Shown here: positions 2,561-62,543 of the stretch, in pieces | How the letters are laid out: each line of letters opens with the position of its first letter | How positions within the stretch are numbered: the stretch's first letter is position 1 | Assembly (NCBI GenBank): GCA_022316685.1 | Contig: JAKJHU010000388.1 | Coordinates: 1 to 64,000 of the forward strand | Length of the DNA: 64,000 nt | Direction of reading: 5' to 3' | Origin: Progne subis subis | Lineage: Eukaryota > Chordata > Aves > Passeriformes > Hirundinidae | Made by a program: the position numbers and the translations under genes | Notes under the pieces: generated by a model | Told to the model about the DNA's origin: nothing | Seen by the model: only the letters and a program-made list of their open reading frames with translations | The model's database searches: none

Positions 2561-2950
2561 TGATTGGGATACACAAAGCAATCACACAGAGATGAGAGAT
2601 TTCGCAGGGCAGAGGTGTTCCTCTGAGAGAGCCCAAGGCTGAGCCAAGGCCGAGAGCCTCTCTGCCCGTTTATTTCTTACTTTTTATACATTTGTGGGTC
2701 TGGCTGTGGATTGGCTTCTGGAGTTTTCACCTCCCAGCCGAATGGCCAGACCAACTGTCAGTTACAATTGTTTTCAGGTTAGAAATATGCAAACAAAGGA
2801 CAGAGAATGAAAAACAAAGGATTTGTTTATGTTCCCATGTGTGAGAAAAAGGTAGAAACTGCTCCTAATATTGTGCAGTAGCTAAAAGGTCTGACTCCAT
2901 TTTATGAACAATCAAAAGGCTTTAAAAAACTCAGGAAAACCACGGTGACA
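2561..2950 (-). mobile_element. LTR-C, 3' LTR of ERV-C copy 1
   Basis: Read on the minus strand the LTR begins TGTCACCGTGG at 2950, immediately after a purine tract (plus 2951-2965), and ends near 2561. It is homologous to LTRs at 58694-59062 (minus) and 31463-31822 (plus). The terminal bases near 2561 are diverged from the copy at 58694, so that edge is uncertain by a few bases. A TATA-like TGTATAAAAAG and a polyadenylation region are seen on the minus strand around 2680. Confidence 0.75.
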
Positions 2951-3029
2951 TCTCACCCTTTTAACTCTACAAAAAAAGAAAAACAGAAAAAGAAAAATGA
3001 ACAAATTTACAAAGGGAATATATACAAAT

Positions 3030-5773
3030 TCAATCACTGTCTGTGGAGGAATCATCAGAGTGATCACTCGAGGATTCATCCACTTGGTGGCTTTCAAGTT
3101 GATCACAGCTTCCACCTTGCCTGTCGGCTGAATTCTGCCTCTGTGGTCGCAGGTCAGGACGGACACACTTTGAAGGTAGCCAGCATGTCCCAGTGTCTGT
3201 GGACACACACACATACCCTCGCCCCATAGCGATAAGGTCATAGGGTCCTTCCCATTGCTTGGTGACTAAATTTCAGACCCGTACCTTCGCTCGAGGCTGT
3301 TGCTCACCGTCCGAAGCCTGCAACGAGAGATGATGGTTCAGAATGACAGGATTGTTTGAGTTCTGCGCCACCGTAAGGTGATTGATGGTGTACAAAGCCT
3401 TTGCCAACCGACTGTGTGGGGTTTAACCCTGCATTCCCCGTTTCTGCTTCTGAAGAACACGTTTGAGTGTACCATGATTGCGTTCTACAATCGCCTGTCC
3501 CGTCAGAGAATGAGGGATGCCAAAGTTATGTGACACACCCCATGACTGTAGGAACTGCCGTACCTGCTGCGAGGCATAAGCAGGACCATTATGGGTCTTC
3601 ACAGCAGAAGGTATGCCAAGAACAGCAAAGGCCTGCCTCCAGTGGGCAATGACATCTCGGGCTTTCTCTCCTGTGTGAGCAGAAGCCCACATCGCAGAGG
3701 AGAACGTGTCCACCGTGACATGCACATACTTGAGCCGGCCAAACTCGACGACCTGGGTGACATCGGTCTGCCAAAGCTCCAAGGCTTTAAGGCCTCTGGG
3801 GTTAAACCCTGCCAGCAATGGCACACCAAGGGCGTGACAGTCGTCGCACGACTCGACAATTTCATTAGCCTCAGTGGCAGTCAGTTTGAACTGCTTCTGC
3901 AGCGTATGCGCATTTTGGTGGAAAAACCCATGCGATGCCTTGGCCTGCGCGAGCACGTCAGACTGAGGCGCTAGCCACTCTGGGTTAGCCAACTTGTCAG
4001 CCCTTGCATTACCTTCCGCTACAAATCCTGGCAAGTTAGTATGACTCCGTACATGCAGAACATAATATGCATGAACTCTGGCCTGAATTGCACACCACAG
4101 GGTCTTCAGTAAATTAAACAAGGCAGGGTTACTGACCTCCTTCAAAACTGAACAACCCAATCGAGTGTGATGTCGGCAACATAGGCTGAATCTGTGACCA
4201 AATTGAAAGGTTCCTGGGAAAATTTCTCAAATGCCGTGACAGCAGCCCTTAGTTCAACCAGTTGGGCTGAACCATCCTCATGGCTTTCCAACACCTGCCA
4301 CTCAGATCCATCCTGCCACGTAACAATGGCTTTTCCTGTTTTGCCCAAACCGTCAGTGAAGACGGTGGGTCCTTGCGCTGGCTCTTGGCTATTTTTGGGT
4401 CGTAGAGAAAATTGAGTATTTTTGGCCACTTGCAATAGCTTGTGGCTAGGCAGATGATAAGTGATCTGCCCTGAAAAGCCCTCGAGAGCACTTTGCAGCG
4501 AAACATTGTTCGCATAGCTCCAATCAAATTCCTCCCTCTGAACCGGGAGTATGATCTTTGAGGGATCTGCACCCATCAATTGCAAACAGCATGGCCGGCA
4601 CTTGATTATCAAGCGCGCAATCAATTCAAACAGCGCCGTCGCTGTCTTATGCGGCTGATGAGGCAGGAAGACCCATTCCAAGATGTGCAGAGGATCAGTC
4701 CAATCATCATTCCATTGGCCGATGATACCTGTAGGATGTAAATCAGGAGTGGTAATGAACACAGTGACATCAATGGAAGGTTCAATGCGGTACACCTGGC
4801 AAGCCGAAACAGCTTGCTGAACCTCCTCCAGAACTTTTCGTGCCTCAAGGGTCAATTCACGAGGTGACTTTAAATCAGTGTCCCCTTTCAACAATTCAAA
4901 CAAGGGAGACAGTTGTGCTGTGGTCAGCCCGAAGAAAGGATGTAACCAAATGATAACAACTACCAGCTTCTGAGCATCATTCAGTGTCTTCACCGATTGC
5001 ACAAATTGCACCTCCTGGTGACGGATTGTCCGTTCCAGAATTTTGACCCCCAAATATTTCCAGGGAGGTTGTTGTTGCACCTTTTCTGGAGCCACCTGCA
5101 GTCCATGTGAATGCAGAGCATTCAACAACTGAGGCTGTATCCTCAGCAGCTCATCCTGGGTGGGCGCAGCCACCAAAATGTCGTCCATATAATGATAGAC
5201 GTGAGCATCAGGAAACTGCTTGCAAAATCCAGACAAGGCACGGGCTACATACCACTGGCATAACACTGGGGACTTACACATGTCCTGAGGCAAAACTTTC
5301 CATTGATACCGCAGTGCGGGCTCGGCATTATTTATTGTTGGTATCGTGAAGGCAAATTTTGGTCTGTCATCGGGATGCAGAGGGATCGTAAGAAAACAAT
5401 CCTTCAGATCCACAATGAGGACCGGCCAGTCCACGGGAAGCATGGTAGGCGATGGTAAACCAGCCTGCAATGTTCCCATGCCTTCCATCACAGCATTGAT
5501 CTTTCAGAGGTCTTGTAGCAACCTCCATTTCCCAGACTTCTTTTTGATACAAAAGACAGGAGTGTTCCAGGGACTGGTAGATGGTTCCAAATGCCCCTGG
5601 TCCAACTGTTCCTGTACGAGTTCACGAAGGGCGACTAGCTTGTCATGAGGGAGGGGCCACTGGTTCTCCCAGATGGGTCTGTCCACCAGCCACTGTAAAG
5701 GAGGTGTGGGACACTCTGCGCCCTTCATCACAGTGGCCCCCCTCAAAAATCCGTTCCCATTCACACCCCTCAC
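3030..5773 (-). pseudogene. pol: pol remnant of ERV-C copy 1 (RT, RNase H, integrase)
   Basis: This region encodes reverse transcriptase, RNase H and integrase of a class II retrovirus. The N-terminal RT piece (5504-5773) is stopped by a TGA where copy 2 has arginine. RT resumes (4142-5491) with the polymerase motif YMDD inside HYMDDILVAAP and RNase H motifs TDG and TDSAYVAD. A frameshift near 4150 separates RNase H from integrase (3423-4160). Integrase shows the zinc-binding HH-CC region and a core with D (TDVTQ), H in KTHNGPAY where family members have D, and E (IVERNH). A TAA at 3423-3425 and a TGA at 3273-3275 interrupt the C-terminal domain, which ends in an acidic serine tail (ESSSDHSDDSSTDSD). 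At least four lesions make it non-functional. Confidence 0.85.
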
Positions 5774-6435
5774 ATGGCCAAAACATCCCTCCCCAAGAGG
5801 TTCTGAGCAATCTCAGTAACATGAGGCCAAATTATGGCTGTCTGTCCCTCCGGGTTCGTGATGGCCACAGGATTCCGGCTCTTGTAGCATTGCTTCATTC
5901 CTCCTAAGCCAGAGATCAATGTCTTTGCCAGGCTCAAAGGCCACTGCGGGGGTCAAGCAGCCAGGGAGAGAATGCTCACGTCAGCCCCCGTATCTAGAAG
6001 GCCACCAAGGTGGATCTCGGATGGCGTGGCACCAACCATGGACACGGTACACAGCGTCTCAGGACGGTCTTTGGTCAGGACAGCAGTCCAGCGCACTTGA
6101 GGCGGCCCAGTGGAGCCGAAGCCACCGTCACCTTGCGACCGGTCCTCGGTCCTGGAAACAGAAGACTTAAAAGGAACAAGTTGAGCAATTTGTGTGCCTT
6201 TTGGAATAGTCAGAGGGGGGGTGGGTGTGGAGACCATTGCGTGAATCTGTCCCGAAAAATCCGCATCAATCAGTCCCAGGTGCACCATGATACCCTGAAT
6301 GGTGGCACTGGACCTCCCCATCAGGAAGGCACTCATGCCATCACCCAAGGGACCAAAGGCATCCAGAGGAACCTTGTATATTTTTTCCGAATCAATCATG
6401 ACAGACTTGGCTGTGCAGACATCAACACCTGCTGA
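5743..6435 (-). pseudogene. pro: dUTPase-protease (pro) remnant of ERV-C copy 1
   Basis: On the minus strand a dUTPase-like domain ([16 protein letters not shown], then IPKGTQIAQL) is followed by an aspartic protease with the active-site motif [12 protein letters not shown] dUTPase fused upstream of the protease is the layout of betaretroviruses, where it cleaves dUTP and the protease matures Gag and Pol. A TGA at plus 5953-5955 replaces a tryptophan just after the active site, as judged from copy 2, so the protease is truncated. The last part of the frame leads to the pro-pol frameshift signal at 5746-5752. Confidence 0.75.
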
Positions 6436-6824
6436 ACCGCGGGTGCTGGCTGCAAGCCTGCTGAGCAGATCTCCATTGGTTGGGGCAGAGGCAGAGACAT
6501 TTGTTTCGGCACGCGTCTCGCCTTCGCGCTCTGTGTTGAGTTTCCCGAACTGCCCAACGAATGACCATTCACATGCACTGTTGCCTTACACGCGTTTGCA
6601 GTGTGGTTCGGCCTTCCACATCGTGCACAATGACACAAGACAGCCGTAGGCTTCTGTGCCTTTCTGCCCTGTTTCTTCCTGGCCCGAGCACCCCATTGCT
6701 GCTGGTGCACCCCCCGGGGAACGATCCAGACAGGCTGCTTAGCAGCTGCCTCAGCCGGTTGCACGGCCACAGGCACGGCCGGCTGGACCGCCGTAGCCAC
6801 CATTGGTTGGACAACCATAGCCAC
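6400..6824 (-). pseudogene. gag: gag C-terminal fragment of ERV-C copy 1 (nucleocapsid)
   Basis: The fragment encodes the end of Gag: an alanine/valine/glutamine/proline-rich repeat (units around AVQPA), a basic stretch, and one zinc knuckle CARCGRPNHTANAC (C-X2-C-X4-H-X4-C) that would bind genomic RNA. Upstream gag is replaced by LTR-A; the open frame runs a few codons into that LTR, so its first residues are not retroviral Gag. Compared with copy 2, the stop that ends gag before pro is absent here (CAG instead of TAG), so the frame continues to about 6396. Confidence 0.75.
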
Positions 6825-8456: not shown

Positions 8457-8631
8457 ATGGGCATACGTTTATCGAGAAATCAAAAGAGTGCTTTTAAACA
8501 ACTTAGAAACATTTCAACAGATCTAAAATTTCCTGATAAGCTCTTAATCAAATTTATTTCCTGGCTGTCAGCTGAGATTCCAGACAGTACTTTACAAGAT
8601 ATAAATTCGGTTTCATTTTGGGATGATGTGG

Positions 8632-9296
8632 TGTCCTAGGGTAACTTTATGATGCTTGTATCCCCAGTCGTCTGTTCTGTTTGGACTCTGTATATTGAGT
8701 CCTGTGCCTTTAAGACTGGTTCTAAGAGCAAGGAGAAGCACGGAGTTTGTTTTGAGAAAACTGCCTGACTCCTCCACATTCTTCTCCGGACGGTGTTCAG
8801 CGGAGGCTTGGAGAGACTGCAGGACAGACATCTTTTTGCTTTTAGTTAGTTTCAGCTAGCTAAGGCAGAGAAGTTCCCTGGACTGTTTTTTTTCTTTCTT
8901 TTTTCTTGGAACTGTTTAAACCTGCTCTGGACTGAAAACCCAGGGGAGCACTGGGGGCTGCACCTGCGGCCCACCGGGGCCTGGAGCTCGGCATTTTCCA
9001 GCAGCGCCGGAGGGACTGGGACTGAGGAGAGACTGAGAGGGCCGAGCTCCACCCACGGCAAGGACTTTCTCAATTTGCCATCTCACTTCAGAACGAGAGG
9101 TTTTATTGTTTCATATTATTCATTCTTTATACTTGTACGCACTTTATTTGTTTAGTAAAATAGTTTTTTCCACTTTTCTCCACAAAGGTTTTTTTTTTTT
9201 TTTTCGGACTGGTTGGAGGGAGGGGCCACTTGGGTTTGCTTCCCAGAGAGATCCTATACAGGGGTTTTCCCCCAAATTTGTCTCCAAACCAAGACA
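8632..9296 (+). mobile_element. 5' LTR of ERVL-1
   Basis: Starts TGTCCTAGGG and ends CCAAGACA, 665 bp. It has a TATA-like region and a T-rich run near 9190-9204. It matches the solo LTR at 36176-36838 at most positions where the 3' LTR of ERVL-1 carries A, so it keeps the ancestral bases. Confidence 0.9.
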
Positions 9297-9306
9297 TACC
9301 CTTAAT

Positions 9307-9323
9307 TGGCGCCTACTGCGGGG
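9307..9323 (+). other. Primer-binding site of ERVL-1
   Basis: TGGCGCCTACTGCGGGG begins 10 bases after the 5' LTR. ERVL-2 has a related site, TGGCGCCCAGTGTGAGG, after its LTR (about 47447). The tRNA is not assigned. Confidence 0.65.
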
Positions 9324-10149
9324 CAAAAGAGAGTAGAAAAAACTTGTATTACTATTAACTGCATTTTTTTTGTTGTTGTTGTTGTCCTTTGGGTAGGGAT
9401 TAAACAGACAGTGGCCATGTTGCTTCTTGAAGTCCTAATGTCTCTTAGAATAGAGTCTTTTCTGCATTTCTGTTCCCTAGGCTTTTTTGAGGTCTTAATA
9501 CCTTTCTGGTCCCTAGGTTTGTTTTCCTACCCAGAAATAGTTCCAATATTGTCCTTAACATACAGCTTTTACACTAGGGATGCACAAATTAGAATAGTTA
9601 TTTTGCTGGGTTCGGTGATTATGGCTTACAAGAAGCTTATAAAGATACTGGAGTTTGTTCTGGGTATGTTCAGTTTATGGTTTTTTCGTCCTACCCTGCG
9701 TCCTAGTTCCAGCAGCATGTTTTGGGGATTTATCAATAACTGCACCCAGTTTGTTAGAGGAGGAGTAGGGGATGAGGCTCTTCAGCCTCTTTTTTCCTTC
9801 TTCTCTTTTAAGTCAGTTACATCACTTTTGGAGAATGTTCAGGGTCTCCTGAATGTTAAAGACACCACCTTCCTGGTGTTTCACGTGGTGACTTTCCTCT
9901 ATATGGCTTATAGCTTTTCTAGAATGAGTCACACACTGCTAAACACTGTAGGGCAGCAGATAGAGGCAAGGGAGCAGAGAGATAAATCAGTCACTCAGGC
10001 TGCAGCCAACCCCACAGCTATTCAGGCTGCAGCTAAACCAGACAGTGAGACTAAGACACCGGCAGTTGCTGCAGTAAAGAAGGGAAAGAAGCACACGGAC
10101 AAAACCGATCAACCAGTAGACGATGATTCAGGTGAAGGATCCTCAGTGC

Positions 10150-10416
10150 CTCCTGACACCCAGTCGGAAGTCAAACCACCTGACACACAATCAGAAGCTG
10201 AAGCAACTGATGATACACAGTCAGAAGCTGAACCAACTGATACAAAATCGGAAGCCCAACCAACTGGTACAAGATCAGGAGTCCAACCAACTAGCACACG
10301 ATCAGAAGGCCAACCAGCTGCTACAAGATCAGGAGCCCAACCAACTGCTACAACATCAAGAGCCCAACCAACTGCTACAAGATCAGGAGCCCGACCAACT
10401 GCTACAAGATCAAGAG
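10150..10416 (+). repeat. 27-bp coding minisatellite in ERVL-1 gag
   Basis: About nine to ten tandem units of 9 codons, consensus near QPTATRSGA, with earlier units richer in acidic residues (DTQSEAEP). The units stay in frame. ERVL-2 has no such array at the equivalent place, so the expansion is specific to this lineage. Confidence 0.85.
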
Positions 10417-11369
10417 ATACTATTGAGTCCTTTTCCCTGAAGGACCTTCGTGGCCTAAGAAAGGATTATACTCAACGACCTGATGAATCTATAATTAGTT
10501 GGTTAGTCCGTCTTTGGGATGCTGCAGGCGAGGCTACAATACTGGATAGCACTGAAGCAAGACATCTTAGATCCCTATCACATGATCCAGTTATTGACCA
10601 AGAAATGATGAGGGAGGCTAGTCCTTGCAGTCTCTGAGAACGGGTCTTGAGAAGCGTGGCACAAAGATATCTGTGTGCCGACGATCTCTATCTGCAGCAA
10701 ACTCAGTGGAAAACCATTGAACAAGGGATTCAGCGCTTGAGAGAAATAGCAGTGGCGGAGATTGTCTTCTCAGATGACCTAAACACTAGGAACCCCGACT
10801 TGGTACCATGTACACCTGTAATGTGGCGAAAACTTGTACGACTTAGGCCACAAGAATACTCCTCTGCTTTAGCAATAATGAAGCGGGATGAGACAGAGGA
10901 GACTGTGCTGGATATGGCGAAGAAGCTCCGAACATATGCAGATGCCGTGCATGGTCCAACACATGCAAGAATCGCAGCTTTGGAAACACAAGTGCGGGGA
11001 TTAGCAGACAAGATAGAAGAGAATCACAAAGAACTCAAGGAGAACATTCTCCAGATCTATGCAGTACAAGTTAAGGGCTCTAGCACCACACGCAAACGTT
11101 CCCTAGATAGAGAGGGAAAAGGCATTCCACGAGCTAAGCTGTAGTCCTTCCTGCGTGATTGTGGAGAAAACATGAAAAGATGGGATGGAGAATCTACTGA
11201 TGCTATGACACAACGGCTGCGTGAATTGTTGGATGGCAAGACTGTGAGAAGAAGTTCTAGCAAGAAGGAAGCAGCTCCGGTTACCCAGGGAAATAGGGAT
11301 AATCAAGCTTAGAGGAGCCCTGCCTCTAGCCAGGTAGAGGCCAGGGAAAACCGTGTTTTTTGGACTGTG

Positions 11370-11654
11370 TAGATTCGTTAGCCTGGCACATCAGAACCAC
11401 AAAAATATGAAGCCTTAGTTGACACTGGTGCACAATGCACATTACTCCCATCAAGACATGTGGGGGAAGAATCTGTTTCCATTGCTGGGGTGACAGGGGG
11501 CTCACAAAATTTTACTTTGGTAGAAGCTAATGTGAGCCTGACTAGAAATGAGTGGAAGAGACACCGTATTGTGACTGGCCCAGAAGCTCCGTGCATTTTG
11601 GGCATAGACTTCCTCCGGAATGGCTATTACAAAAACCCGAAAAGATTTAAGTAG
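11370..11654 (+). pseudogene. pro: Protease region of ERVL-1
   Basis: An aspartic protease with active site LVDTGAQCTLLP (DTG at 11421-11429), a flap region (AGVTGGSQ) and the C-terminal ILGIDFL motif. In-frame TAGs at 11370-11372 and 11379-11381 lie before it, and another at 11652-11654 after it. In ERVL-2 the first and third positions are TGG. The catalytic segment itself is intact; the surrounding polyprotein frame is not. Confidence 0.75.
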
Positions 11655-14497
11655 GCATTCGGGATAGCAGCTGTAGAGACAGGAGATGTTAAGCAGTTGA
11701 ATACCTTGCCTGGACTATCAGAGAACCCATCTGCTGTAAGTCTTCTGAAGGTGGAAGAGCAACAAGTGCCAATTGCCACTTCAACAGTGCATCGCCGACA
11801 GTACAGAACAACTCGAGATGCTGTGATCCCCATCCACAAGATGATCCGTGAGCTGGAGACCCAAGGGGTGGTCAGCAAAACCCACTCACCCTTCAATAGC
11901 CCTATCTGGCCTGTGCGCAAGTCTGACAGAGAATGGAGATTGACCGTGAACTACCGTGCCTTGAACGAAGTGACTCCACCATTGAGCGCTGCTGTGCCGG
12001 ACATGCTGGAACTCCAGTACGAGCTGGAGTCCAAGGCAGCAAAATGGTATGCCACAATTGACATTGCTAATGCATTTTTCTCCATTCCTCTGGCTGCAGA
12101 ATGCAGGCCTCAGTTTGCTTTCACCTGGAGGGGCGTGCAGTACACCTGGAACCGACTGCCCCAGGGGTGGAAACACAGCCCCACCATCTGCCATGGACTG
12201 ATCCAGGCTGCACTGGAAAAAAGGTGAGGCTCCGGAACATCTACAGTACATTGATGACATCATTGTGTGGGGGAACACGGCAATAGAAGTGTTTGAGAAA
12301 GGAGAGAAGATCATCCAGATTCTCCTGAAGGCTGGCTTTGCTATCAAGAAGAGCAAAGTTAAGGGACCTGCTCAAGAGATCCAGTTTCTAAGAATAAAGT
12401 GGCAAGATGGAAAGCGTCAGATTCCCACTGAAGTCATCAACAAAATCACAGCAATGTGTCCACCAACCAACAAAAAAGGAAACACAAGCTTTCCTAAGCG
12501 CCATAGGTTTCTAGAGGATGCACATTCCTGAGTACAGCCAGATTGTGAGCCCTCTCTACCTAGTCACCCGCAAGAAGAATGATTTCCACTGGGGCCCTGA
12601 ACAGCAACAAGCCTTTGCCCAGATCAAACAGGAGATCGCTCATGCAGTAGCCCTTGGCCCAGTCAGGACAAGACCAAATGTGAAAAACGTGCTCTACTCA
12701 GCAGCCAAAAACAATAGCCTGTCCTGGAGCCTTTAGCAAAAAGTGCCTAGGGAGACTCGGGGCCAGCCACTGGGATTCTAGAGCCGAAGCTACAGAGGGT
12801 CCGAAGCCAACTACACTCCAACAAAGAAGGAAATCTTAGCCGCCTATGAAAGAATTCAAGCTGCCTCAGAAGTAGTAGGCACTGAAACACAACTCCTGCT
12901 AGCACCTCGACTACCAGTGCTGGGATGGATGTTTAAAGCAGAAGTACCCTCTACCCACCATGCCACCAATGCCACATGGAGCAAATAGATTGCCCTCATC
13001 ACTCAGCACGCCCGCATTAGAAACCCAAATCGCCCTGGGATTCTAGAAATAATTACAAACTAGCCAGAAGGTGAAAACTTTAGTCTCATAGATGAAGAAG
13101 AGCAGGAACAAGTGACACGTGCTGAAGAAGCTCCACCATACAACCAACTGCCAGCAGAAGAAACTTGCTACGCTCTTTTCACTGACGGTTCCTGCCGCAT
13201 CGTAAGGATGAAACGAAAGTGGAAAGCAGCCGTATGGAGCCCCACACGACAGGTTGCACAAGCCACTGAAAGAGAAGGTGAGTCAAGCCAACTTGCTGAA
13301 CTCAAAGCTGTTCAACTGGCCCTGGACATTGCTGAAAGAGAGAAGTAGCCAAAGCTCTACCTCTACACTCATTCGTGGATGGTAGCTAATGCTCTGTGGG
13401 GATGGCTGGAAAAGTAGAAAAAGGCCAATTAGCAGCGCAGAGGAAAGCCAATCTGGGCTGCAGATGAGTGAAAGGACATTGCCACTGAGGTAGAGAAGCT
13501 ACCTGTCAAAGTCCGTCATGTAGATGCCCATGTCCCCAAGAGTCGGGCTAATGAGGAGCACCGAAACAACGAGCAGGTAGATCAAGCTGCAAAGATAGAG
13601 GTGTCAAAGATAGACTTAGATTAGCAACACAAGGGAGAGTTGTTCCTAGCTCAATAGGCCCATGATGCCTCAGGTCACCAGGGCAGAAATGCCACCTATA
13701 AGTGGGCCCGAGACCGAGGGGTGGATCTAACCATGGACAGTATTTCTCAGGTTATCCATGACTGTGAGACGTGTGCTGCCATCAAACAGGCCAAGCGGGT
13801 GAAGCCCCTATGGTATAGTGGGCGATAGTCCAAGTATAAGTATGGAGAAGCCTGGCAGATTGACTACATCACCCTTCCCCAAACCCGCCAAGGCAAGCGC
13901 TACGTGCTGACCATGGTGGAAGCCACAACTGGATAGCTAGAGACCTACCCTGTGCCTCACGCTACTGCCCGGAACACCATCCTGGGCCTTGAAAAGCAAG
14001 TTCTTTAGAGGCATAGTACCCCTGAGAGGATTGAGTCAGACAATGGAACTGATTTCAAGAACAGCCTCATCAATAACTGGGCTAAGGAACATGGCATTGA
14101 GTGGGTGTACCATATCCCCTATCATGCACCAGCTTCAAGGAAGGTAGAAAGATACAATAGACTGCTAAAAACCACCCTGAAAGCACTAGGTGAGGGATCA
14201 TTCAAAAATTAGGAGCAGCATCTAACAAAGGCCACCTAGTTAGTTAACACCCGAGGTTCCACCAACCGAGCAGGCCCTGCCCAATCTGAGCCCCTACATA
14301 CAGTAAATGGAAAAAAAGTCCCAGTAGTACATGTAAGAGGTTTGTTAGGGAAGACAGTTTAGATCAATCCTGCTTCAAGTACAGAAGATCCCATCCGTGG
14401 GATTGTCTTTGCTCAGGGGCCAAGCTGCACATGGTAGGTAATGCAGAAAGATAGAACCACACGATGTGTACCCCAGGGAGATTTAATTGTTGGGTGA
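11655..14497 (+). pseudogene. pol: pol of ERVL-1 (RT, RNase H, integrase), multiply stopped
   Basis: RT fingers and palm are open from 11697 to 12227 (VNYRALNEVTPP, NRLPQGWKHSPT). A frameshift follows, then the catalytic motif in YIDDIIVWG near 12250. RNase H motifs (FTDGSC near 13184; AELKAVQ) lie in 13143-13348. The integrase region (about 13660-14490) keeps the zinc-binding HH-CC pattern and the D, D, E residues (QIDYI, ESDNGTD, KVERYN). In-frame stops occur at 12986, 13061, 13346, 13415, 13430, 13469, 13622, 13655, 13826, 13934, 14006, 14210, 14237, 14360, 14435 and 14495 (first base of each). Almost all are TAG or TGA where tryptophan fits, while other conserved residues remain. Confidence 0.85.
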
Positions 14498-14648
14498 GAA
14501 CCGTGTGTAATTATCGTTGTGTGCTGAATAGTACTGCCACTGTATGTAGTTATATATTGCATATTGTTTTTATATAGATGTATGTGTGTGTAGAGCTAGA
14601 GTATATATAAGTTTTAGTAAATTGACAATATGGGGATAAGGGGTGGAA

Positions 14649-15285
14649 TGTCCTAGGGTAACTTTATGATGCTTGTATCCCCAATCGTCTGTTCTGTTTG
14701 GACTCTATATATTGAGTCCTGTGCCTTTAAGACTGGTTCTAAGAGCAAGGAGAAGCGCGGAGTTTGTTTTGAGAAAACTGCCTGACTCCTCCACATTCTT
14801 CTCCAGACGGTGTTCAGCGGAGGCTTAGAGAGACTGCAGGACAGAGATCTTTTTGCTTTTAGTTAGTTTCAGCTAGCTAAAGCAGAGAAGTTCCCTGGAC
14901 TGTTTTTTTTCTTTCTTTTTTCTTAGAACTGTTTAAACCTGCTCTGGACTGAAAACCCAAGGGAGCACTGGAGGCTGCACCTGCGGCCCACCGGGGCCTG
15001 GAGCTCGGCATTTTCCAGCAGCGCCGGAGGAACTAGGACTGAAGAGAGACTGAGAGAGAGCCGAGCTCCACCCACGGCAAAGACTTTCTCAATTTGCCAT
15101 CTCACTTCAGAACGAGAAGTTTTATTGTTTCATATTATTCATTCTTTATACTTGTATGCACTTTATTTGTTTAGTAAAATAGTTTTTTCCACTTTTCTCC
15201 ACAAAGGTTTTTTTTTTTTTTTCGGACTGGTTAGAAGGAGGGGCCACTTGAGATTGCTTCCCAAATTTGTCTCCAAACCAAGACA
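14649..15285 (+). mobile_element. 3' LTR of ERVL-1, G-to-A edited
   Basis: Starts TGTCCTAGGG and ends CCAAGACA, 637 bp, with a deletion of about 28 bp near its end relative to the 5' LTR. It carries about 14-16 G-to-A changes, mostly in GG context, for example cttggag to cttagag, gcaaggac to gcaaagac and gagaggtt to gagaagtt. Few differences run in other directions. Confidence 0.9.
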
Positions 15286-16892
15286 TGTGGGAAAATTAAT
15301 AACTTTAAAATTTGAAAATGGGGAAAACAAAATTTCTTTATTTATTCCAATATTCTTACAAGTACGCAAGAAGCTGTTAGAAGCAGAAAACAACAGACAG
15401 CCATGCTCTCAGCAACTCCCTGTTCCCGAGAAGCAGGGATTCCCTGATTCCATACTGGATTCCGCTCCTCAAACCCACCCATCGTCCTTATACCCTCCTC
15501 TCCCACCTGTTTTCCCTCAGCAAGATGCACTTTTTTCCTCTCGGGGCTCTGGCCACGTGGATGAGACCCTGGGGGGCTCGCACCACGCGGTCACCCCTGA
15601 TGGCGGACGGCATTGTATTCCTCCTCCTTCCCACTATCCCTTCTTCCCCCCACTTCCCGCCCCGACCCCTTATCTCTCACCCAATCCCCCACCCCACCCT
15701 TCTCCCCAGTGCCTCCCCCTCCCTCCGAGCGGCCGCGCCAAGGGGGAGCGGGGAGGGTCCCTTGCAGTCACCAGTGCCAGCGTGGCTGGAGTGAAAGATA
15801 GTGACGGGCGGCTGCCAGCCCGCAGCAGCGGAGGGGTGAGTGGCCCCCCTGCAGCAAGGGCTAAGGAGCAGCCTAGCCTGGGGCCCCGGGGGAGGAGGGA
15901 AGAGCTGCCTGTTGCCGGACCCCAGGGAGGGGGTGGGACAACACCCTCTGGCTGCCTGGGTAATAGAGAAGCAGCAGGATTTTTAGCAACTCAGAATAAT
16001 GATCAAGAAAGCATACCATCTGTGGCTCCTGTAGTATATGTAGGCAAAAGACATGTGCGTAAAGAGTATCTGCCTTTTTCATACCAAGATAAAAAAGAGC
16101 TGTGTAAAATGCAGAAACAATTTGGGAGATCCAGTGAAATATTTAAGGGCATGATGAAAGCTACCTTCAGTTCAAATGAGATGGTACCCAGTGACATTAA
16201 AGATTTATTCAGATGCCTATTAACTCCCTCAGAGTATGACCTATGGGAAGGATTATGGAAAAAAGCTTTGAAAACAATATTGCAGGAAATTCAGCAAACT
16301 CCTGATGCTCAGGACAGCGATGACAATGACATCACACATGATCATTTGTGTGGTGAAGGTGATTTATCTAGTGCAAATGAGCAAATTCGGTTGTTATCCA
16401 AGTCAGTTTTAGATAAGATCTGTAATGCTGCAGAAAAGACTTTTTATCAGATTCCATCACCTGAGATAAAGACCAGTTATGTTAACATTAAACAGTTTCC
16501 TTCAGAGAATTTCTTGCAGTTTGTGGACCGTCTGAGAAGTCAAGTGGAAAGACAAGTGCAAGACCCAATGGTACAGGCAGAATTGATTAAGGAGATGGCT
16601 CAGAGGAATGCTAATGAGACCTGTCGTAGAATCATTCTTAGCCTTCCCCTTGACCCATTGCCTAGTCTTGCACAGATGATAGAAGCCTGTACCAGGAGAG
16701 AGGAACTTTTCAGTGCACCTGAAAGGAATCCGGGACTGACACACCCAAAGCCTGTGGCAACTGCAGCACCAGGAGCAAGGAGGCAACCAATGTCATCAGA
16801 CCAGCTGCAGCACATCATCTGCCACCGCTGCAAAAGGCCAGGACACTTCGCCAAGGCCTGCCCGGAAAACCAGAAACGCAAGTCAAAAATCA

Positions 16893-36175: not shown

Positions 36176-36838
36176 TGTCCTAGGGTAACTTTATGATGCT
36201 TGTATCCCCAATCGTCTGTTCTGTTTGTGCTGTATATTGAGTCCTGTGCCTTTAAGACTGGTTCTAAGAGCAAGGAGAAGCGCGGAGTTTGTTTTGAGAA
36301 AACTGCCTGACTCCTCCACGTTCTTCTGCGGACGGTGTGTTCGGCGGAGGCTTGGAGAGACTGCAGCACAGAGATTTTTTTTGCTTTTAGTTAGTTTCAG
36401 CTAGCTAGGGCAGAGAAGTTCCCTGGACTGTTTTTTTTTTCTTTCCTTTTTCTTGGAACTGTTTAAACCTGCTCTGGACTGAAAACCCAGGGGAGCACTG
36501 GGGGCTGCACCTGCGGCCCACTGGGGCCTGGACCTCGGCATTTTCCAGCAGCGCCGGAGGGACTGGGACTGATGAGAGACTGAGAGAGAGCCGAGCTCCA
36601 CCCACGGCAAGGACTTTCTCAATTTGCCATCTCACTCCAGAACGAGAGGTTTTATTGTTTCATATTATTCATTCTTTATACTTGTATGCACTTTATTTGT
36701 TTAGTAAAATAGTTTTTTCCACTTTTCTCCACAAAGGTTTTTTTTTCGGACTGGTTGGAGGGAGGGGCCACTTGGGTTTGCTTCCCAGAGGGATCCTATA
36801 CAGGGGTTTTCCCTCAAATTTGTCTCCAAACCAGGACA
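36176..36838 (+). mobile_element. Solo ERVL LTR (ERVL-1 family) inside ERV-D pol
   Basis: 663 bp, TGTCCTAGGG to CCAGGACA. Flanking 5-mers CCACA (36171-36175) and CCACG (36839-36843) fit a 5-bp target duplication with one change. Pol sequence of ERV-D is continuous across it. It agrees with the ERVL-1 5' LTR at nearly all GG sites edited in the ERVL-1 3' LTR, so it serves as an outgroup for that comparison. Confidence 0.88.
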
Positions 36839-38934: not shown

Positions 38935-39130
38935 TGAGACGTTAATTTTAAAGAATTAAGGATTTTTAGGAAAGTTAAGATAATAAGTTGCTGAATTAGC
39001 TGAAGTAGATAGGTAATCTTTGTTCGCAGTTAACAGAAGCCGAATCTTAGATAAGCTACCCCGGATCTTGTAACTCATTTCTTGTCAGGTTTATGTTTAT
39101 GTAGTTGTGCTTGTAATGAAAAACAAAATG
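38935..39130 (+). mobile_element. Partial 3' LTR-D of ERV-D
   Basis: A purine tract (about 38918-38934, AAAGAAGAAGTGGGGAA) precedes TGAGACGTTA, the start of LTR-D. The first 196 bp match the LTR at 41269-41947 in inverted orientation. Homology ends exactly at 39130 after AAAACAAAATG, where ERV-3 copy 2 begins. Confidence 0.85.
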
Positions 39131-39836
39131 CAGGTCCCTCAATTTGCACTATGTTTTTTGAGATTTTTGCCATTGTGGTTCCTCTTATGCCCTGAAGTTT
39201 GCCTGCCACAGGTTGCAGCTCCCAATGTGATGGCCACATGCTCTCAGGTATAACAGTAATGTCTGCCCCCGAGGCAAGCACCCCCTCCACATGGAGGCGG
39301 TCTGACCCACAGGCTAAGTTACATGCCAGAGAAGGTTTGTTCTCCCCCACCACCTCTGCCCAGTAGACTTCCGGTGATTTTCCATCTGCTAGGACCTCAG
39401 CCGGAATAGGAATGGCCTGGGCAAGGACTTGCCCCTCTACCAGGTAGAATGGTGGGTGCATGCAGCGTGCCAACAGCATGAGGCCTGTTATCTTTCCCTT
39501 AATGGTCATGGGAGCTACCTCAACCTCCAAGGGTGTGTGTGCTGTGTCCCCAATAACAAAATACTCACTGTTCTGCTCCATGTGGTTAACCTTCATGTCC
39601 TGTGAAATGTTTTGCAGGTCCACTGTAATTACTGTCCAATCAGTAGATCTGAAATGAAAACCTTTGGTAGTCACGAGCCTATATCGGCCTTGCGGCTGCC
39701 ATACCTTGTTAGTTGAACATTTGACATTTTTATTTTTCTGTACCCCCACACCCTGCAACCTGCCCTCCCCCTTTTTTGTTAAGAGAGAGACATTTGCCAC
39801 GGTATGGCCTTGTAAATTTCTTTCTTGGCGCGTCAA
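39131..39836 (-). pseudogene. pro: pro of ERV-3 copy 2, truncated
   Basis: The minus-strand frame matches copy 1 pro from MTRQERN through the protease (VLASGADITVIP) to about IVQIEGP, where the junction at 39131 replaces the C-terminus with sequence read from LTR-D. The protease active site reads LASGAD instead of LDSGAD: the catalytic Asp codon is changed to Ala. That is a second inactivating change besides the truncation. Confidence 0.82.
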
Positions 39837-39865
39837 GGAGATAAAATCTGGGCCGCGCTGTGAAT

Positions 39866-42336
39866 TCAGTTTTTTTGATTTTTTGACTTGCGTTTCTGGT
39901 TTTCCGGGCAGGCCTTGGCGAAGTGTCCTGGCTTTTTGCAGCGGTGGCAGATGATGTGCTGCAGCTGGTCTGATGACATCGGTTGCCTCCTTGCTCCTGG
40001 TGCTGCAGCTGCCACAGGCTTTGTGTGTGTCAGTCCCGGATTCCTTTCAGGTGCACTGAAAAGTTCTGCTCTCCTGGTACAGGCTTCTATCATCTGTGCG
40101 AGACTAGGCAATGGGTCAAGGGGAAGGCTAAGAATGATTCTACGACAGGTCTCATTAGCATTCCTCTGAGCCATCTCCTTAATCAATTCTGCCTGTACCA
40201 CTGGGTCTTGCACTTGTCTTTCCACTTGACTTCTCAGACGGTCCACAAACTGCAAGAAATTCTCTGAAGGAAACTGTTTAATGTTAACATAACTGGTCTT
40301 TATCTCAGGTGATGGAATCTGATAAAAAGTCTTTTCTGCAGCATTACAGATCTTATCTAAAACTGACTTGGATAACAACCGAATTTGCTCATTCGCACTA
40401 GATAAATCACCTTCACCGCACAAATGATCATGTGTGATGTCATTGTCATCGCTGTCCTGAGCATCAGGAGTTTGCTGAATTTCCTGCAATACTGTTTTCA
40501 AAGCTTTTTTCCATAATCCTTCCCATAGGTCATACTCTGAGGGAGTTAATAGGCATCTGAATAAATCTTTAATGTCACTGGGTACCATCTCATTTGAACT
40601 GAAGGTAGCTTTCATCATGCCCTTAAATATTTCACTGGATCTCCCAAATTGTTTCTGCATTTTACACAGCTCTTTTTTATCTTGGTATGAAAAAGGCAGA
40701 TACTCTCTACGCACGTGTCTTTTGCCTACATATACTACAGGAGCCACAGATGGTATGCTTTCTTGATCATTATTCTGAGTTGCTAAAAATCCTGCTGCTT
40801 CTCTATTACCCAGGCAGCCAGAGGGTGTTGTCCCACCCCCTCCCTGGGGTCCAGCAACAGGCAGCTCTTCCCTCCTCCCCCGGGGCCCCAGGCTAGGCTG
40901 CTCCTTAGCCCTTGCAGAAGGGGGACCACTCCCCCCGACTCCGGTGCTGCGGGCTGGCAGCCGCTCTTCATTATCTATCCCCCCATCCGCGCTGGCACTG
41001 GTGATTGCAAGGGATCCTCCCCCCTCCCCCTTCGCGCAGCCGCTCGGAGGGAGGGGGAGGCACTGGGGAGAAGGGTGGGGTGGGGGATTGGGCGAGAGAT
41101 ATGGGGTCGGGGCGGGAAGTGGGGGGAAGAAGGGATAGTGGGAAGGAGGAATGCAACGGCGTCTGCCATCAGGGGTGACCACGTGGTGCGAGCCCCCCAG
41201 GGTCTCATCCACGTGGCCAGAGCCCTGAGAGGAAAAAAGTGCATCTTGCTGAGGGAAAACAGGTGGGATGACTTATTAAAGAAATATGGGTACTGATCTA
41301 GTATCGATACCCAGCTGTGACGGACAAAAACTCTCTAACAGTTTTAAGTTAGAAAGTGTATGTTTATTACGGCCGGGCAGCACAGCAGGATATTTCCCTA
41401 ATTCGCACTGCGAATTTCACAGGTAATTACAAAGCCTTTTATTTACAAAAGTGTTGAATACCCAAAATACAAATGCATATTCATGCCCCTGTCCCCTCCC
41501 ATTCCTCGCTTCGTATGCTAATTGGCAAAAAGGCTATTAAGCATGCGTACTTTGTTTCTTAAAATGAGTCGGGGGTCTATTTTGGGGTGGGGTCACCCAA
41601 AATGAGGAAGTAAGATGAGTCTTCCTCATCCTGACCTTTCTACCTTTTCAATGCATTCATGACAAATGGATCCTTGGTAGAACTTATAGTTTCCTGTGTT
41701 CAATGGGTCCTTTAAGCAGGAAATCTGCAGCTATCTTATGTCCTATTTACCACATTTTGTTTTTCATTACAAGCACAACTACATAAACATAAACCTGACA
41801 AGAAATGAGTTACAAGATCCGGGGTAGCTTATCTAAGATCCAGCTTCTGCTAACTGTGAACAAAGATTACCTATCTACTTCAGCTAATTCAGCAATTTAT
41901 TATCTTAACTTTCCTAAAAATCCTTAGTTCCTCAAAATAACGTCTCAGGGAGAGGATTGTATAAGGATGATGGGTGGGTTTGAGGAGCAGAATCCAGTAT
42001 GGAATCAGGGAATCCCTGCTTCTCGGGAACAGGGAATTGCTGAGAGCATGGCTGTCTGCTGTTTTCTGCTTCTAACAGCTTCTTGTGTACTTGTAAGAAT
42101 ATTGGAATAAATAAAGAAATTTTGTTTTCCCCATTTTCAACTTTTAAAGTTATTAATTTTCCCACATCATCCCAAAATGAAACAGAATTTATATCTTGTA
42201 AAGTACTGTCTGGAATCTCAGCTGACAGCCAGGAAATAAATTTGATTAAGAGCTTATCAGGAAATTTTAGATCTGTTGAAATGTTTCTAAGTTGTTTAAA
42301 AGCACTCTTTTGATTTCTCGATAAACGTATGCCCAT
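39866..42336 (-). pseudogene. gag: gag of ERV-3 copy 2, split by solo LTR-D
   Basis: Gag starts MGIRLSR at 42336 and is open through the matrix region to about 41952, covering the segment that ERVL-1 interrupts in copy 1. LTR-D lies at 41269-41947. Gag resumes at 41264 and runs through the proline-rich region, capsid (FLQFVDRLRSQVE) and zinc knuckle CHRCKKPGHFAKAC to a TGA directly after the AAAAAAC slippery site (39869-39875 on plus). Apart from the LTR insertion the frame appears open. Confidence 0.85.
41269..41947 (-). mobile_element. Solo LTR-D in ERV-3 copy 2 gag
   Basis: 679 bp, on the minus strand TGAGACGTTA to AATAAGTCA, flanked by GGGA on the plus strand (41265-41268 and 41948-41951), a perfect 4-bp duplication. 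The minus strand shows AATAAACATACAC, a likely polyadenylation signal. A 4-bp duplication fits a gammaretrovirus-like family, matching its role as the LTR of ERV-D. Confidence 0.88.
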
Positions 42337-42933
42337 GTTTCTGATGTTTTAAAAGGCAAACTGTTCGAAAAATCTTAACCTCTGACGTGAAAAACCAAAG
42401 ACGCCGCTGCGTCCCGCTCGCTCCCGAGGTATCAGAGGCAAGGCGGGCTGGTCGTGGCTCGGGTCGGCCGTCTCTGGCCGCTTTTCCCGACTGCGGGGAC
42501 ACGAGCAGGGGGGTGTTCCGGTGCCGGCTTCTGTCCCGGGACCCTCCCGTAGGTAGCCCACCCCAAAAACGCGCGGTTTTCCCCGGTACATGGAACTCCA
42601 GCCGTTCCGCAGAGAAAAAAAAATCTCTCACCGCGTTACGCAACACACTGCAGCGCAGGGTCCTAAAGCCCTCCACTGTTAAACTATAGGGATCTTCTAG
42701 CGGACCCTGGGGCACGTGCTGCAACGTCAGGGTTTTCTGTCTAAAGGTCGACTCACTTTTGTAGTAAAAGCGAACTCCCGACCCTGTCCTGGCACCCCGA
42801 GCTGCTCGAAAGCAGCCGATAGTGGCCAGGTAGTTGCACCTCCCAAAGAGCTTTATTAACCCCTTAAATAGGGAGTCCCGCTTCATGCGTGGGCTTATTA
42901 ATATTTCATAACAAACCGACGTTGGGGGCCAAC
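42337..42933 (-). other. Leader of ERV-3 copy 2
   Basis: On the minus strand the leader begins with GTTGGCCCCCAACGTCGG, the primer-binding-site position, and matches the copy 1 leader. An alternate frame is open from the LTR through the leader into gag (42296-42958, 220 codons). Copy 1 has stops in it, so coding is not supported. Confidence 0.6.
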
Positions 42934-43278
42934 TGAAACTATACTTCCCTCTAGCCACCCCCGGCTCTCGCTAGCTCAGTTATTCAGGGGTTTTAGGGAA
43001 ATATATTTCAGAGAGACAGAATAGAGATTTCAAAAGAGTGGCTCTCACCCCCAGCTTCCGTCCAAGCTTTATTCTCGATGTGATGTTCCAGGAGGCCAAG
43101 GAGAGAGAGAGAGAACCAGGAAGAAACAGGGGTATATCTAATTTTGGGCCAAGGAAAGATATTGGACCTGAGGCAATAGGGTCAGGAGTAGGTATGATAG
43201 GGAAAAAGGGTTGAACTACATAGTAGAGGTTTCAGGGGGACTCTGAGGGGAAAAACCATTCCTCAGAGGAACACAACA
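42934..43278 (-). mobile_element. 5' LTR of ERV-3 copy 2
   Basis: 345 bp; on the minus strand TGTTGTGTTCC to AGTTTCA, highly similar to the copy 1 LTRs. AATAAA is conserved. The outer flank is AATGATGACG; the matching duplication is lost with the 3' end. Confidence 0.88.
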
Positions 43279-58693: not shown

Positions 58694-59062
58694 TGTCACC
58701 GAGACACACAAAGCAGTCACACGCAGACAAGAGATTTCTGCAAGGCAGAGGTCCTTCCGATCCAGCTCCCAGCTGAGAGAGCGGAGAGAAGAGAGCCCCT
58801 TTGTTTATTTTTACTTTTTATACATTTGTGGGTCTAGCAGAAGATTGGCTTTTTGGGGTTTCCACCCCTCAGCCTCAGTGGCCAGACCAACAGTCAGTTA
58901 CAATTGTTTTCAGGTTAGAAATATGCAAACAAAGGATTTGTTTATGTTACATCTGTGGGAAAGGTAGAAAACTGCTCTAATATTCTACAGTAACTAAAAG
59001 ATCTGACTTCATTTATGAAAATCAAAAGGCAAATAAAAAAACTCAGAAAAAGCAGGGTAACA
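58694..59062 (-). mobile_element. LTR-C, 3' LTR of ERV-C copy 2
   Basis: On the minus strand TGTTACCCTGC to CTCGGTGACA, 369 bp, following a purine tract (AAAAGGGTGAGA, minus). The minus strand has TGTATAAAAAG near 58815. It is homologous to the LTRs at 2561-2950 and 31463-31822. Confidence 0.85.
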
Positions 59063-59142
59063 TCTCACCCTTTTAACTTTAAAAAGAAAACAAAAACAGA
59101 AAAAGAAAAATGAACAAATTTACAAAGGGAATATATACAAAT

Positions 59143-61888: not shown

Positions 61889-62514
61889 GCGGCCAAAACA
61901 TCCCTCCCCCAGAGGTTCTGAGGAATCTCAGTAACATGGGGCCAAATTATGGCTGTCTGTCCCTCCGGGTTCGTGATGGCCATGGGATTCTGGCTCACAT
62001 AGCATTGCTTCATTCCTCCTAAGCCCGAGATCGATGTCTTTGCCAGGGTCAAAGGCCACTGCGGGGGCCAAGCAGCCAGGGAGAGAATGCTCACGTCAGC
62101 CCCCGTATCTAGGAGGCCACGAAGGTGAATCTCGGATGGCGTGGCACCAACCATGGACACGGTACACAGCGTCTCAGGACGATCTTTGGTCAGGACAGCA
62201 GTCCAGTGCACCTGAGGTGGCCCTGTAGAGCCAAAGCCACCGTCTCCTCGCGACCGGTCCTCGGTTCTGGAAACAGAAGACTTAAAAGGAACAAGTTGAG
62301 CAATCCATGTGCCTTTTGGGATAGTCAGAGGGGGGGTGGGTGTGGAGACCATTGCGTGAATCTGTCCCGAAAAATCCGCATCAATCAGTCCCAGGTGCAC
62401 TATGATACCCTGAATGGTGGCACTGGACCTCCCCATCAAGAAAGCACTCATGCCATCACCCAAGGGACCAAAAGCATCCAGAGGAACCTTGTGTATTTTT
62501 TCCGAATCAATCAC
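61858..62514 (-). CDS. pro: dUTPase-protease (pro) of ERV-C copy 2 (open)
   Basis: A 218-codon open frame on the minus strand. A dUTPase-like domain (residues about 10-75: [40 protein letters not shown]) precedes the aspartic protease (active site [11 protein letters not shown] about residue 136, flap GLGGM, and [12 protein letters not shown] near the end). It terminates at GGATTTT-TGA, the pro-pol slippage site. The fused order is betaretrovirus-like. A true dUTPase has further motifs that would lie upstream of the first Met; the product would come from gag by slippage, so the start is not a normal initiation codon. Confidence 0.82.
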
Positions 62515-62543
62515 GACAGACTCGGCTGTGCAGACATCAACAC

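What the first reader, a model, noticed from the sequence alone, without database searches (positions are those of the whole stretch)
8632..15285. ERVL-1 carries an APOBEC-like G-to-A hypermutation footprint
Seen: about 22 in-frame stops in gag-pro-pol are TAG or TGA. Nearly all fall where tryptophan fits, several confirmed against ERVL-2 (SLWER, LWFF, RWAFGIAA). Non-Trp catalytic residues of protease, RNase H and integrase survive. The 3' LTR differs from the 5' LTR by about 14-16 G-to-A changes, mostly GG to AG, with only about 4 substitutions in other directions. The solo LTR at 36176-36838 shares G at most of these sites, so the change is to A. ERVL-1 lies inside ERV-3, whose LTRs differ at only 4 of 347 sites, so slow decay cannot account for this load. 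Known: cytidine deaminases edit minus-strand retroviral cDNA and give plus-strand G-to-A in bursts, and such editing of bird LTR elements has been reported. Inference: one editing event before integration.
Basis: partly seen in the sequence, partly recalled or inferred. Interest (0 to 1): 0.85.

Follow-up and report, generated by a model that had tools for sequence, protein, structure and literature searches.

The report
Songbird retrovirus hypermutated before insertion
A young endogenous retrovirus in what is probably a songbird genome carries a burst of G-to-A damage of the kind made by APOBEC-type DNA-editing enzymes, and because its second LTR is edited while its first is not, the damage most likely happened while the virus was being copied into DNA.

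Summary
The finding holds. ERVL-1 is one provirus (8632-15285; 5-bp target duplication TGTGG). At 5075 internal sites where 8-10 related copies of the same genome agree, it has 107 changes: 95 G>A, 4 C>T, 2 T>C, 0 A>G, 6 transversions. Edits fall at GG (73 of 365) and GA (18 of 414), hardly at GC/GT (4 of 533). Of 25 in-frame stops, 23 are premature and sit on codons that are TGG in relatives (22 in all ten, 1 in nine); the other two are stops in all ten relatives. Of 39 other copies examined, two more (L015, L053) are hypermutated, independently. In the three edited copies, LTR-private G>A lie in the 3' LTR 28 times, in the 5' LTR once; in ten unedited copies 6 and 5. This fits editing of minus-strand cDNA, the 3' LTR minus strand being exposed again by displacement, as proposed for mouse Mtv proviruses in 2025 (PMC12548423). 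The genome holds APOBEC2, an AID-like gene and two APOBEC1-like exons; the motif speaks against AID, so an APOBEC1-like editor is my inference. Editing of songbird LTR elements is known; 3'-LTR-only editing in a bird or ERVL I did not find reported.

The parts
8627..8631 (.). Left copy of the 5-bp target duplication TGTGG
   Evidence: Printed flanks
8632..9296 (+). 5' LTR (TGTCC...GACA), little edited: 1 private G>A among 5 private changes
9306..11312 (+). gag-like frame; open for 443 codons from 9306, first premature stop at 10635; no Pfam match in its first 443 codons; stop at 11310 is shared by ten relatives (probably the family's own gag end, inference)
11382..11651 (+). Protease piece (RVP, 25.6 bits, cut-off 20.7)
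11655..12528 (+). Reverse transcriptase, two open pieces in different frames (RVT_1, 60 and 19.6 bits, cut-off 29.6); the frame changes come with two one-base length changes private to ERVL-1
13064..13621 (+). RNase H pieces (28.4 bits above the cut-off of 25.8; second piece 13.7 below it), split by premature stops
13658..14209 (+). Integrase pieces (Integrase_H2C2 26.4 bits, cut-off 25.5; rve pieces 18.1 and 25.5 bits, below the cut-off of 32.6), split by premature stops
14632..14648 (+). Purine-rich stretch directly before the 3' LTR, candidate polypurine tract (read by eye)
   Evidence: Sequence
14649..15285 (+). 3' LTR with 15 private G>A (13 at GG) and 1 T>A; also lacks about 29 bases near its end that the 5' LTR and the solo LTR have
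15286..15290 (.). Right copy of the target duplication TGTGG
9297..14648 (+). Internal region: 95 G>A among 107 changes against agreeing relatives; GG sites edited by thirds 10/99, 32/136, 31/130
36176..36838 (+). Solo LTR of the same family, used as outgroup for the LTR pair

Best explanation
ERVL-1 is a young endogenous retrovirus whose minus-strand cDNA was deaminated (C to U) by a host APOBEC-type enzyme during reverse transcription; the edited DNA was then integrated. Shown: strand-specific G>A at GG and GA, private to this copy, sparse in the 5' third, and present as LTR-private changes in the 3' LTR but hardly in the 5' LTR. Inferred from the known steps of reverse transcription: the 5' LTR is clean because it is completed from the plus-strand strong-stop copy made early, whereas the minus strand of the 3' LTR is then displaced, becomes single-stranded again and is edited further. 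Tryptophan codons (TGG) are hit because they are GG sites, which disabled gag and pol together. Least certain step (about 0.6 by itself): the enzyme is one of the two APOBEC1-like proteins encoded near the AID-like gene.
For: G>A 95 of 1316 G sites against C>T 4 of 1150 C sites, p 7e-22; GG 73/365, GA 18/414, GC+GT 4/533; 23 premature stops on codons that are TGG in relatives; LTR-private G>A 15 in the 3' LTR and 1 in the 5' LTR, the same bias in L015 (10:0) and L053 (3:0), pooled p 1e-7, against 6:5 in ten unedited copies; ERVL-1 and L015 share 28 edits against 23.2 expected from context and none of their other changes (12 and 27); mean position of edited GG sites shifted 3'-wards, permutation p 0.008 in ERVL-1 and 0 of 20000 in L015; APOBEC-family exons in the same genome.
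Against: The gradient is not significant in L053 (p 0.29), which has no edit in its last 537 internal bases, where exposure should be long. In ERVL-1 the densest bin is 12507-13041 and not the stretch next to the 3' LTR. Three of the ten unedited copies also have two or more LTR-private G>A, so single LTR changes say little. The ten references are fewer than ten independent insertions: five share the same printed 5' flank and two of these share both flanks. No test links any enzyme to these edits.
Confidence: 0.9

Rival explanations
1. Slow decay after insertion, including deamination of methylated CpG, made the stops and LTR differences.
For: ERVL-1 does have some ordinary private changes: 12 of 107 internal and 6 in 613 LTR columns.
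Against: Decay would give C>T as often as G>A; seen 4 against 95. It would not respect GG context, nor the 3' LTR. Ten other copies together have 40 private G>A beside 46 C>T.
Confidence: 0.01
2. The edits were inherited: ERVL-1 was copied from the RNA of an already edited provirus.
For: Such a case is described in PMC12548423 (Mtv23 from Mtv17; section 7). Retrocopies of edited parents cannot be excluded for the internal region alone.
Against: A copy made from RNA takes both LTRs from one template, so 3'-LTR edits would appear in both LTRs; here 15 are in the 3' LTR only. No parent with the same edit set was among the 39 other copies examined.
Confidence: 0.04
3. The 3' LTR alone was replaced by gene conversion or recombination with an edited copy.
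For: Flanks of several relatives do not match as target duplications (L009, L017, L018, L022), which suggests recombination or duplication in this family.
Against: ERVL-1's own duplication is intact, its internal region is edited with the same motif, and the same 3'-only bias recurs in L015 and L053. A donor LTR was not searched for directly.
Confidence: 0.02
4. Same mechanism, but the editor was AID (or another deaminase) and not an APOBEC1-like enzyme.
For: An AID-like gene lies in the same cluster (named by recall). Enzyme activity was not tested by any search.
Against: AID's preferred WRC motif (recalled) reads GYW on the plus strand; at 289 such sites the three edited copies have 3, 5 and 1 edits, against 73, 108 and 30 at 365 GG sites.
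Confidence: 0.1

Closest known systems
3'-LTR-specific G>A in mouse Mtv proviruses (PMC12548423; passages, section 7)
   Same: Hypermutated proviruses whose LTRs differ almost only by G>A in the 3' LTR (13, 16, 2 and 9 differences in four Mtvs, all but one of them 3' G>A); one MLV with four such changes
   Different: Mouse Apobec3, betaretrovirus with very long LTRs and many edits shared by both LTRs; here a bird ERVL-like element with LTRs of about 660 bp, few shared LTR edits (1, 4 and 2), in a genome where the Pfam search showed no obvious APOBEC3
APOBEC editing of songbird LTR retrotransposons (Knisbacher and Levanon 2016, not held; seen only as cited in PMC6523648 and PMC6497032, passages)
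   Same: G>A-edited LTR elements in a songbird; zebra finch is said to be strongly edited among 111 vertebrates
   Different: I could not read whether LTR pairs or motifs were examined there; here single proviruses are resolved and the LTR asymmetry is shown
APOBEC3G hypermutation of HIV-1 (PMC6395001 passages; PMC3909203 listing)
   Same: Plus-strand G>A with GG preferred and TGG hit; rate rising towards the 3' end
   Different: The clear peak just 5' of the polypurine tract is not seen in all three copies here
TguERVL2-type elements of estrildid finches (PMC6523648 passages)
   Same: Recently active songbird ERVL subfamily
   Different: Not compared by sequence here

Membership tests
APOBEC-hypermutated provirus | Strong excess of plus-strand G>A over C>T and other changes, private to the copy | tested here: met
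   95 of 107, C>T 4; p 7e-22
APOBEC-hypermutated provirus | Fixed dinucleotide context | tested here: met
   GG 73/365, GA 18/414, GC+GT 4/533; odds ratio 10.6, p 4e-25 for GG
APOBEC-hypermutated provirus | Tryptophan codons turned into stops | tested here: met
   23 premature stops, TGG in all ten (22) or nine of ten (1) relatives
APOBEC-hypermutated provirus | Gradient that follows single-strand exposure, rising to the polypurine tract | tested here: inconclusive
   5' third lowest in three of three copies; trend significant in ERVL-1 and L015, not in L053; no clear peak next to the 3' LTR
APOBEC-hypermutated provirus | A named deaminase shown to make the edits | not testable with these tools
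   Needs enzyme assays; candidates seen
3'-LTR-specific editing (Mtv kind) | LTR-private G>A in the 3' LTR and not in the 5' LTR | tested here: met
   15:1, 10:0 and 3:0 in three edited copies; 6:5 in ten unedited ones
3'-LTR-specific editing (Mtv kind) | Further G>A shared by both LTRs | tested here: met
   1, 4 and 2 in ERVL-1, L015 and L053; small numbers, and one unedited copy, L023, also has 2
ERVL (class III) endogenous retrovirus | LTRs with TG...CA ends and a 5-bp target duplication | tested here: met
ERVL (class III) endogenous retrovirus | Protease, reverse transcriptase, RNase H, integrase in that order | tested here: met
   the integrase core (rve) pieces lie below the Pfam cut-off
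ERVL (class III) endogenous retrovirus | Reverse transcriptase groups with ERVL in a tree | not tested
ERVL (class III) endogenous retrovirus | dUTPase-like domain in pol and no env (recalled) | not tested
   No call addressed it

The most novel reading that the evidence does not exclude
Editing of the displaced 3'-LTR minus strand is a general step of vertebrate retrovirus restriction and not a mouse or APOBEC3 peculiarity: in this bird it happened at least three times independently in one ERVL-like family, made by an APOBEC1-like enzyme with a CC motif. The difference between 3' and 5' LTR then works as a fossil mark that editing took place during reverse transcription, and it makes naive LTR ages of edited copies too old (21 differences in 635 columns, against 6 in 613 once 3'-LTR G>A is set aside).
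Probability: 0.6. Interest if true: 0.6.

Novelty: new member of a known kind. Interest (0 to 1): 0.5.

Why it matters
Three edited proviruses of one family, with unedited sister copies as built-in controls, show during which step of the retroviral cycle the editing happened. They carry the 3'-LTR-only footprint, described for mouse in 2025, into birds. The motif speaks against AID and directs attention to APOBEC1-like genes as a songbird counterpart of mammalian APOBEC3. It also warns that LTR ages of edited proviruses are inflated.

Tried and rejected
Twin gradient from an internal plus-strand primer: ERVL-1 keeps all eight TGG codons found between 11655 and 12510, and a 9-base match to the tract before the 3' LTR lies at 11863-11871 (read by eye). 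GG editing in 11697-12496 was lower than in 12497-13696 in ERVL-1 (6/50 v 26/81, p 0.01), borderline in L015 (12/50 v 33/81, p 0.06) and L053 (4/50 v 18/81, p 0.05), but not lower than in 10497-11696 in any of the three (p 0.26, 0.84, 0.44). Not supported as a separate minimum.

ERVL-2 as comparator: about 700 bp; G>A 33 v A>G 15 (p 0.013), GG context 16 of 33 v 2 of 15 (p 0.026). Suggestive only; replaced by own-genome copies. GG/AG and CC/CT composition by window: no clear signal by itself. Relatives in viral contigs: two scans, none confirmed. Amino-acid comparison of the reverse-transcriptase piece with 30 of 120 listed bird proteins: six clear departures, four possible through G>A, two the other way; too few to weigh. 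Five other repeat pairs of the window: no strong strand-biased GG excess (4.1-kb pair G/A 48 v A/G 34, GG 11 v 9; ERV-3 inner pair G/A 9 v A/G 9, GG 6 v 1). Counting edited and unedited copies genome-wide by pattern did not complete, so prevalence rests on 39 other copies picked by similarity, some of them probably duplicates.
Full report
What is there. ERVL-1 is a single provirus at 8632-15285, flanked by the duplication TGTGG and inserted in ERV-3: an uninterrupted copy of that ERV-3 stretch on the other strand (43278 to 41948) aligns on both sides of the insertion, with an overlap that fits the duplication. Open pieces, searched apart, match retroviral protease, reverse transcriptase, RNase H and integrase profiles in that order; the integrase core pieces and the second reverse-transcriptase piece lie below Pfam's cut-off. 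The reverse-transcriptase piece is 96% identical to a barn swallow protein, the best of 956 hits of which 120 are listed. The genome's L061 deaminase piece has its best named hits in songbirds (that these are oscines is recalled). So the host is probably a songbird; the species is not given to me.

LTR pair. The LTRs align over 635 columns with 21 mismatches, 17 of them G in the 5' and A in the 3' LTR; the solo LTR makes 14 of 15 3'-private changes G>A. With LTRs of 11 further copies as outgroup, the 3' LTR has 15 G>A (13 at GG) and 1 T>A, the 5' LTR 2 A>G, 1 G>A, 1 G>C and 1 T>C, over 613 columns. The 3' LTR also lacks about 29 bases near its end that the 5' and solo LTRs have.

Internal region. 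The window's assembly (1.17 Gb, 2896 contigs) could be searched; the LTR query scored 40 of 3175 first-look candidates. Of 20 regions fetched, 12 hold full-length relatives. L020 is identical to L019 and was dropped; L015 proved edited; ten remain as reference, not all independent insertions (five share a printed 5' flank, and L009 and L017 share both flanks). At the 5075 sites where 8-10 of them agree, ERVL-1 has 107 changes: 95 G>A, 4 C>T, 2 T>C, 0 A>G, 6 transversions; GG 73/365, GA 18/414, GC+GT 4/533. Scored the same way, each against all other copies, the ten references have 0-10 private G>A beside 0-15 C>T, 40 and 46 in all.

Stops. In the followed frames 25 codons are stops. Two, at 11310 and 14495, are stops in all ten references and are probably the family's own gag and pol ends (inference). 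The other 23 are TGG in all ten (22) or nine of ten (1). In nine of 21 integrase relatives that I printed, tryptophan stands at the four integrase stops in 7, 9, 3 and 2 of them; at the last two most of the nine end earlier or read differently. ERVL-1 also has two private one-base length changes in the reverse-transcriptase region.

Other edited copies. L015 (contig C2485) has 150 G>A of 177 changes, the L053 element (C2220) 40 of 45. L015 shares 11 of ERVL-1's 23 premature stops (13 of 25 codons including the two family stops), yet their shared edits, 28 against 23.2 expected from context, and none of the 12 and 27 other changes shared, indicate separate hits on the same hot sites. ERVL-1 and L053 share 9 against 5.5 expected, L015 and L053 10 against 8.9. 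The three have different target duplications (TGTGG, TAGGG, AACAT). In all, 39 other copies were examined: 11 full-length and 28 over their 3' half (29 loci, one being L022 again); two are hypermutated. They were picked by similarity and some look like duplicates, so 2 of 39 is not a prevalence.

Timing and mechanism. LTR-private G>A, 3' against 5', are 15:1 in ERVL-1, 10:0 in L015 and 3:0 in L053; in the ten unedited copies 6:5 (p 1e-7 for 28:1). Other LTR-private changes are few in the edited copies: 5 in ERVL-1 (4 in the 5' LTR, 1 in the 3' LTR), 4 in L015, none scored in L053. LTRs of a new provirus are normally identical, so a one-sided, one-type difference points to a late step of reverse transcription. 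PMC12548423 (passages; section 7) reports such 3'-only G>A in four mouse Mtvs and one MLV, states that it had not been reported for other retroviruses, and explains it by the displaced minus strand of the 3' LTR becoming single-stranded a second time. The same reading fits here. GG editing is lowest in the 5' third in all three copies (10/99, 16/99, 5/99); the shift is significant in ERVL-1 (p 0.008) and L015 (0 of 20000 permutations) but not in L053 (p 0.29), which has no edit in its last 537 internal bases. So a simple rise up to the polypurine tract, as described for HIV-1 (PMC6395001 passages), is not seen in all copies.

Which enzyme. The Pfam APOBEC_N search of the genome gave 7 exon matches: one on C2491 (L060, best Pfam family APOBEC2), four on C1112 at 7734920-7735976 that I read as AICDA (L063; by recall, not scanned further), and two single exons about 10 and 22 kb from it. 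L062 scores 165.6 bits with APOBEC4_like and 157 with APOBEC1; L061 scores best with SNAD4 (115) and lower with APOBEC1 (78.5); both have human APOBEC-1 as their best solved structure, and both show HAE and SPCxxC motifs. L061's best named relatives are bird 'ABEC1' proteins. Only single exons were seen; whether the genes are whole or expressed was not tested. At the 289 GYW sites, where AID would act (motif recalled), the three edited copies have 3, 5 and 1 edits, which speaks against AID. An APOBEC1-like editor is thus the best candidate by elimination. Zebra finch and lizard APOBEC1 homologues are noted in PMC3880073 (passages). That APOBEC3 is specific to eutherian mammals is from the listed abstract of PMC5399452.

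Known or new. Strong APOBEC modification of zebra finch LTR elements is in print (PMC6523648, passages, citing Knisbacher and Levanon 2016, which is not held). I found no report of 3'-LTR-only editing in birds or in ERVL in the listings; most subscription papers are not in that library and only a few of the listed papers were opened. Verdict: a new member of a known kind, which carries a 2025 observation from mouse to a bird.

Noticed in passing
window 14649-15285, near its end: The 3' LTR lacks about 29 bases that the 5' LTR and solo LTR have; the 3'-only loss might have arisen in the same late step as the 3'-only edits (speculation).
   Followed up: partly
window 10149-10416: Diverged tandem repeat inside the gag-like open frame (self-matches of about 80% at offsets near 30-100 bases).
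   Followed up: no
window 2668-6824 and 58803-62939: A direct repeat pair of about 4.1 kb, 93.6% identical, without marked G/A strand bias.
   Followed up: partly
window 38935-43278: A reverse-strand copy of ERV-3 that lacks the ERVL-1 insertion and so serves as an empty-site relative.
   Followed up: partly
L009, L017, L018, L022, L023: Five near-identical full-length copies share the same printed 5' flank but mostly differ in the 3' flank, and four of them have no matching target duplication: probably duplication with recombination.
   Followed up: no
L061 and L062 (contig C1112 near 7.71-7.72 Mb): Two diverged APOBEC1-like exons near the AID-like gene; L061 fits the Pfam family SNAD4 better than APOBEC1.
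   Followed up: partly
window 9306-10634: Long open 443-codon 5' frame with no Pfam match, the least edited part of ERVL-1.
   Followed up: no
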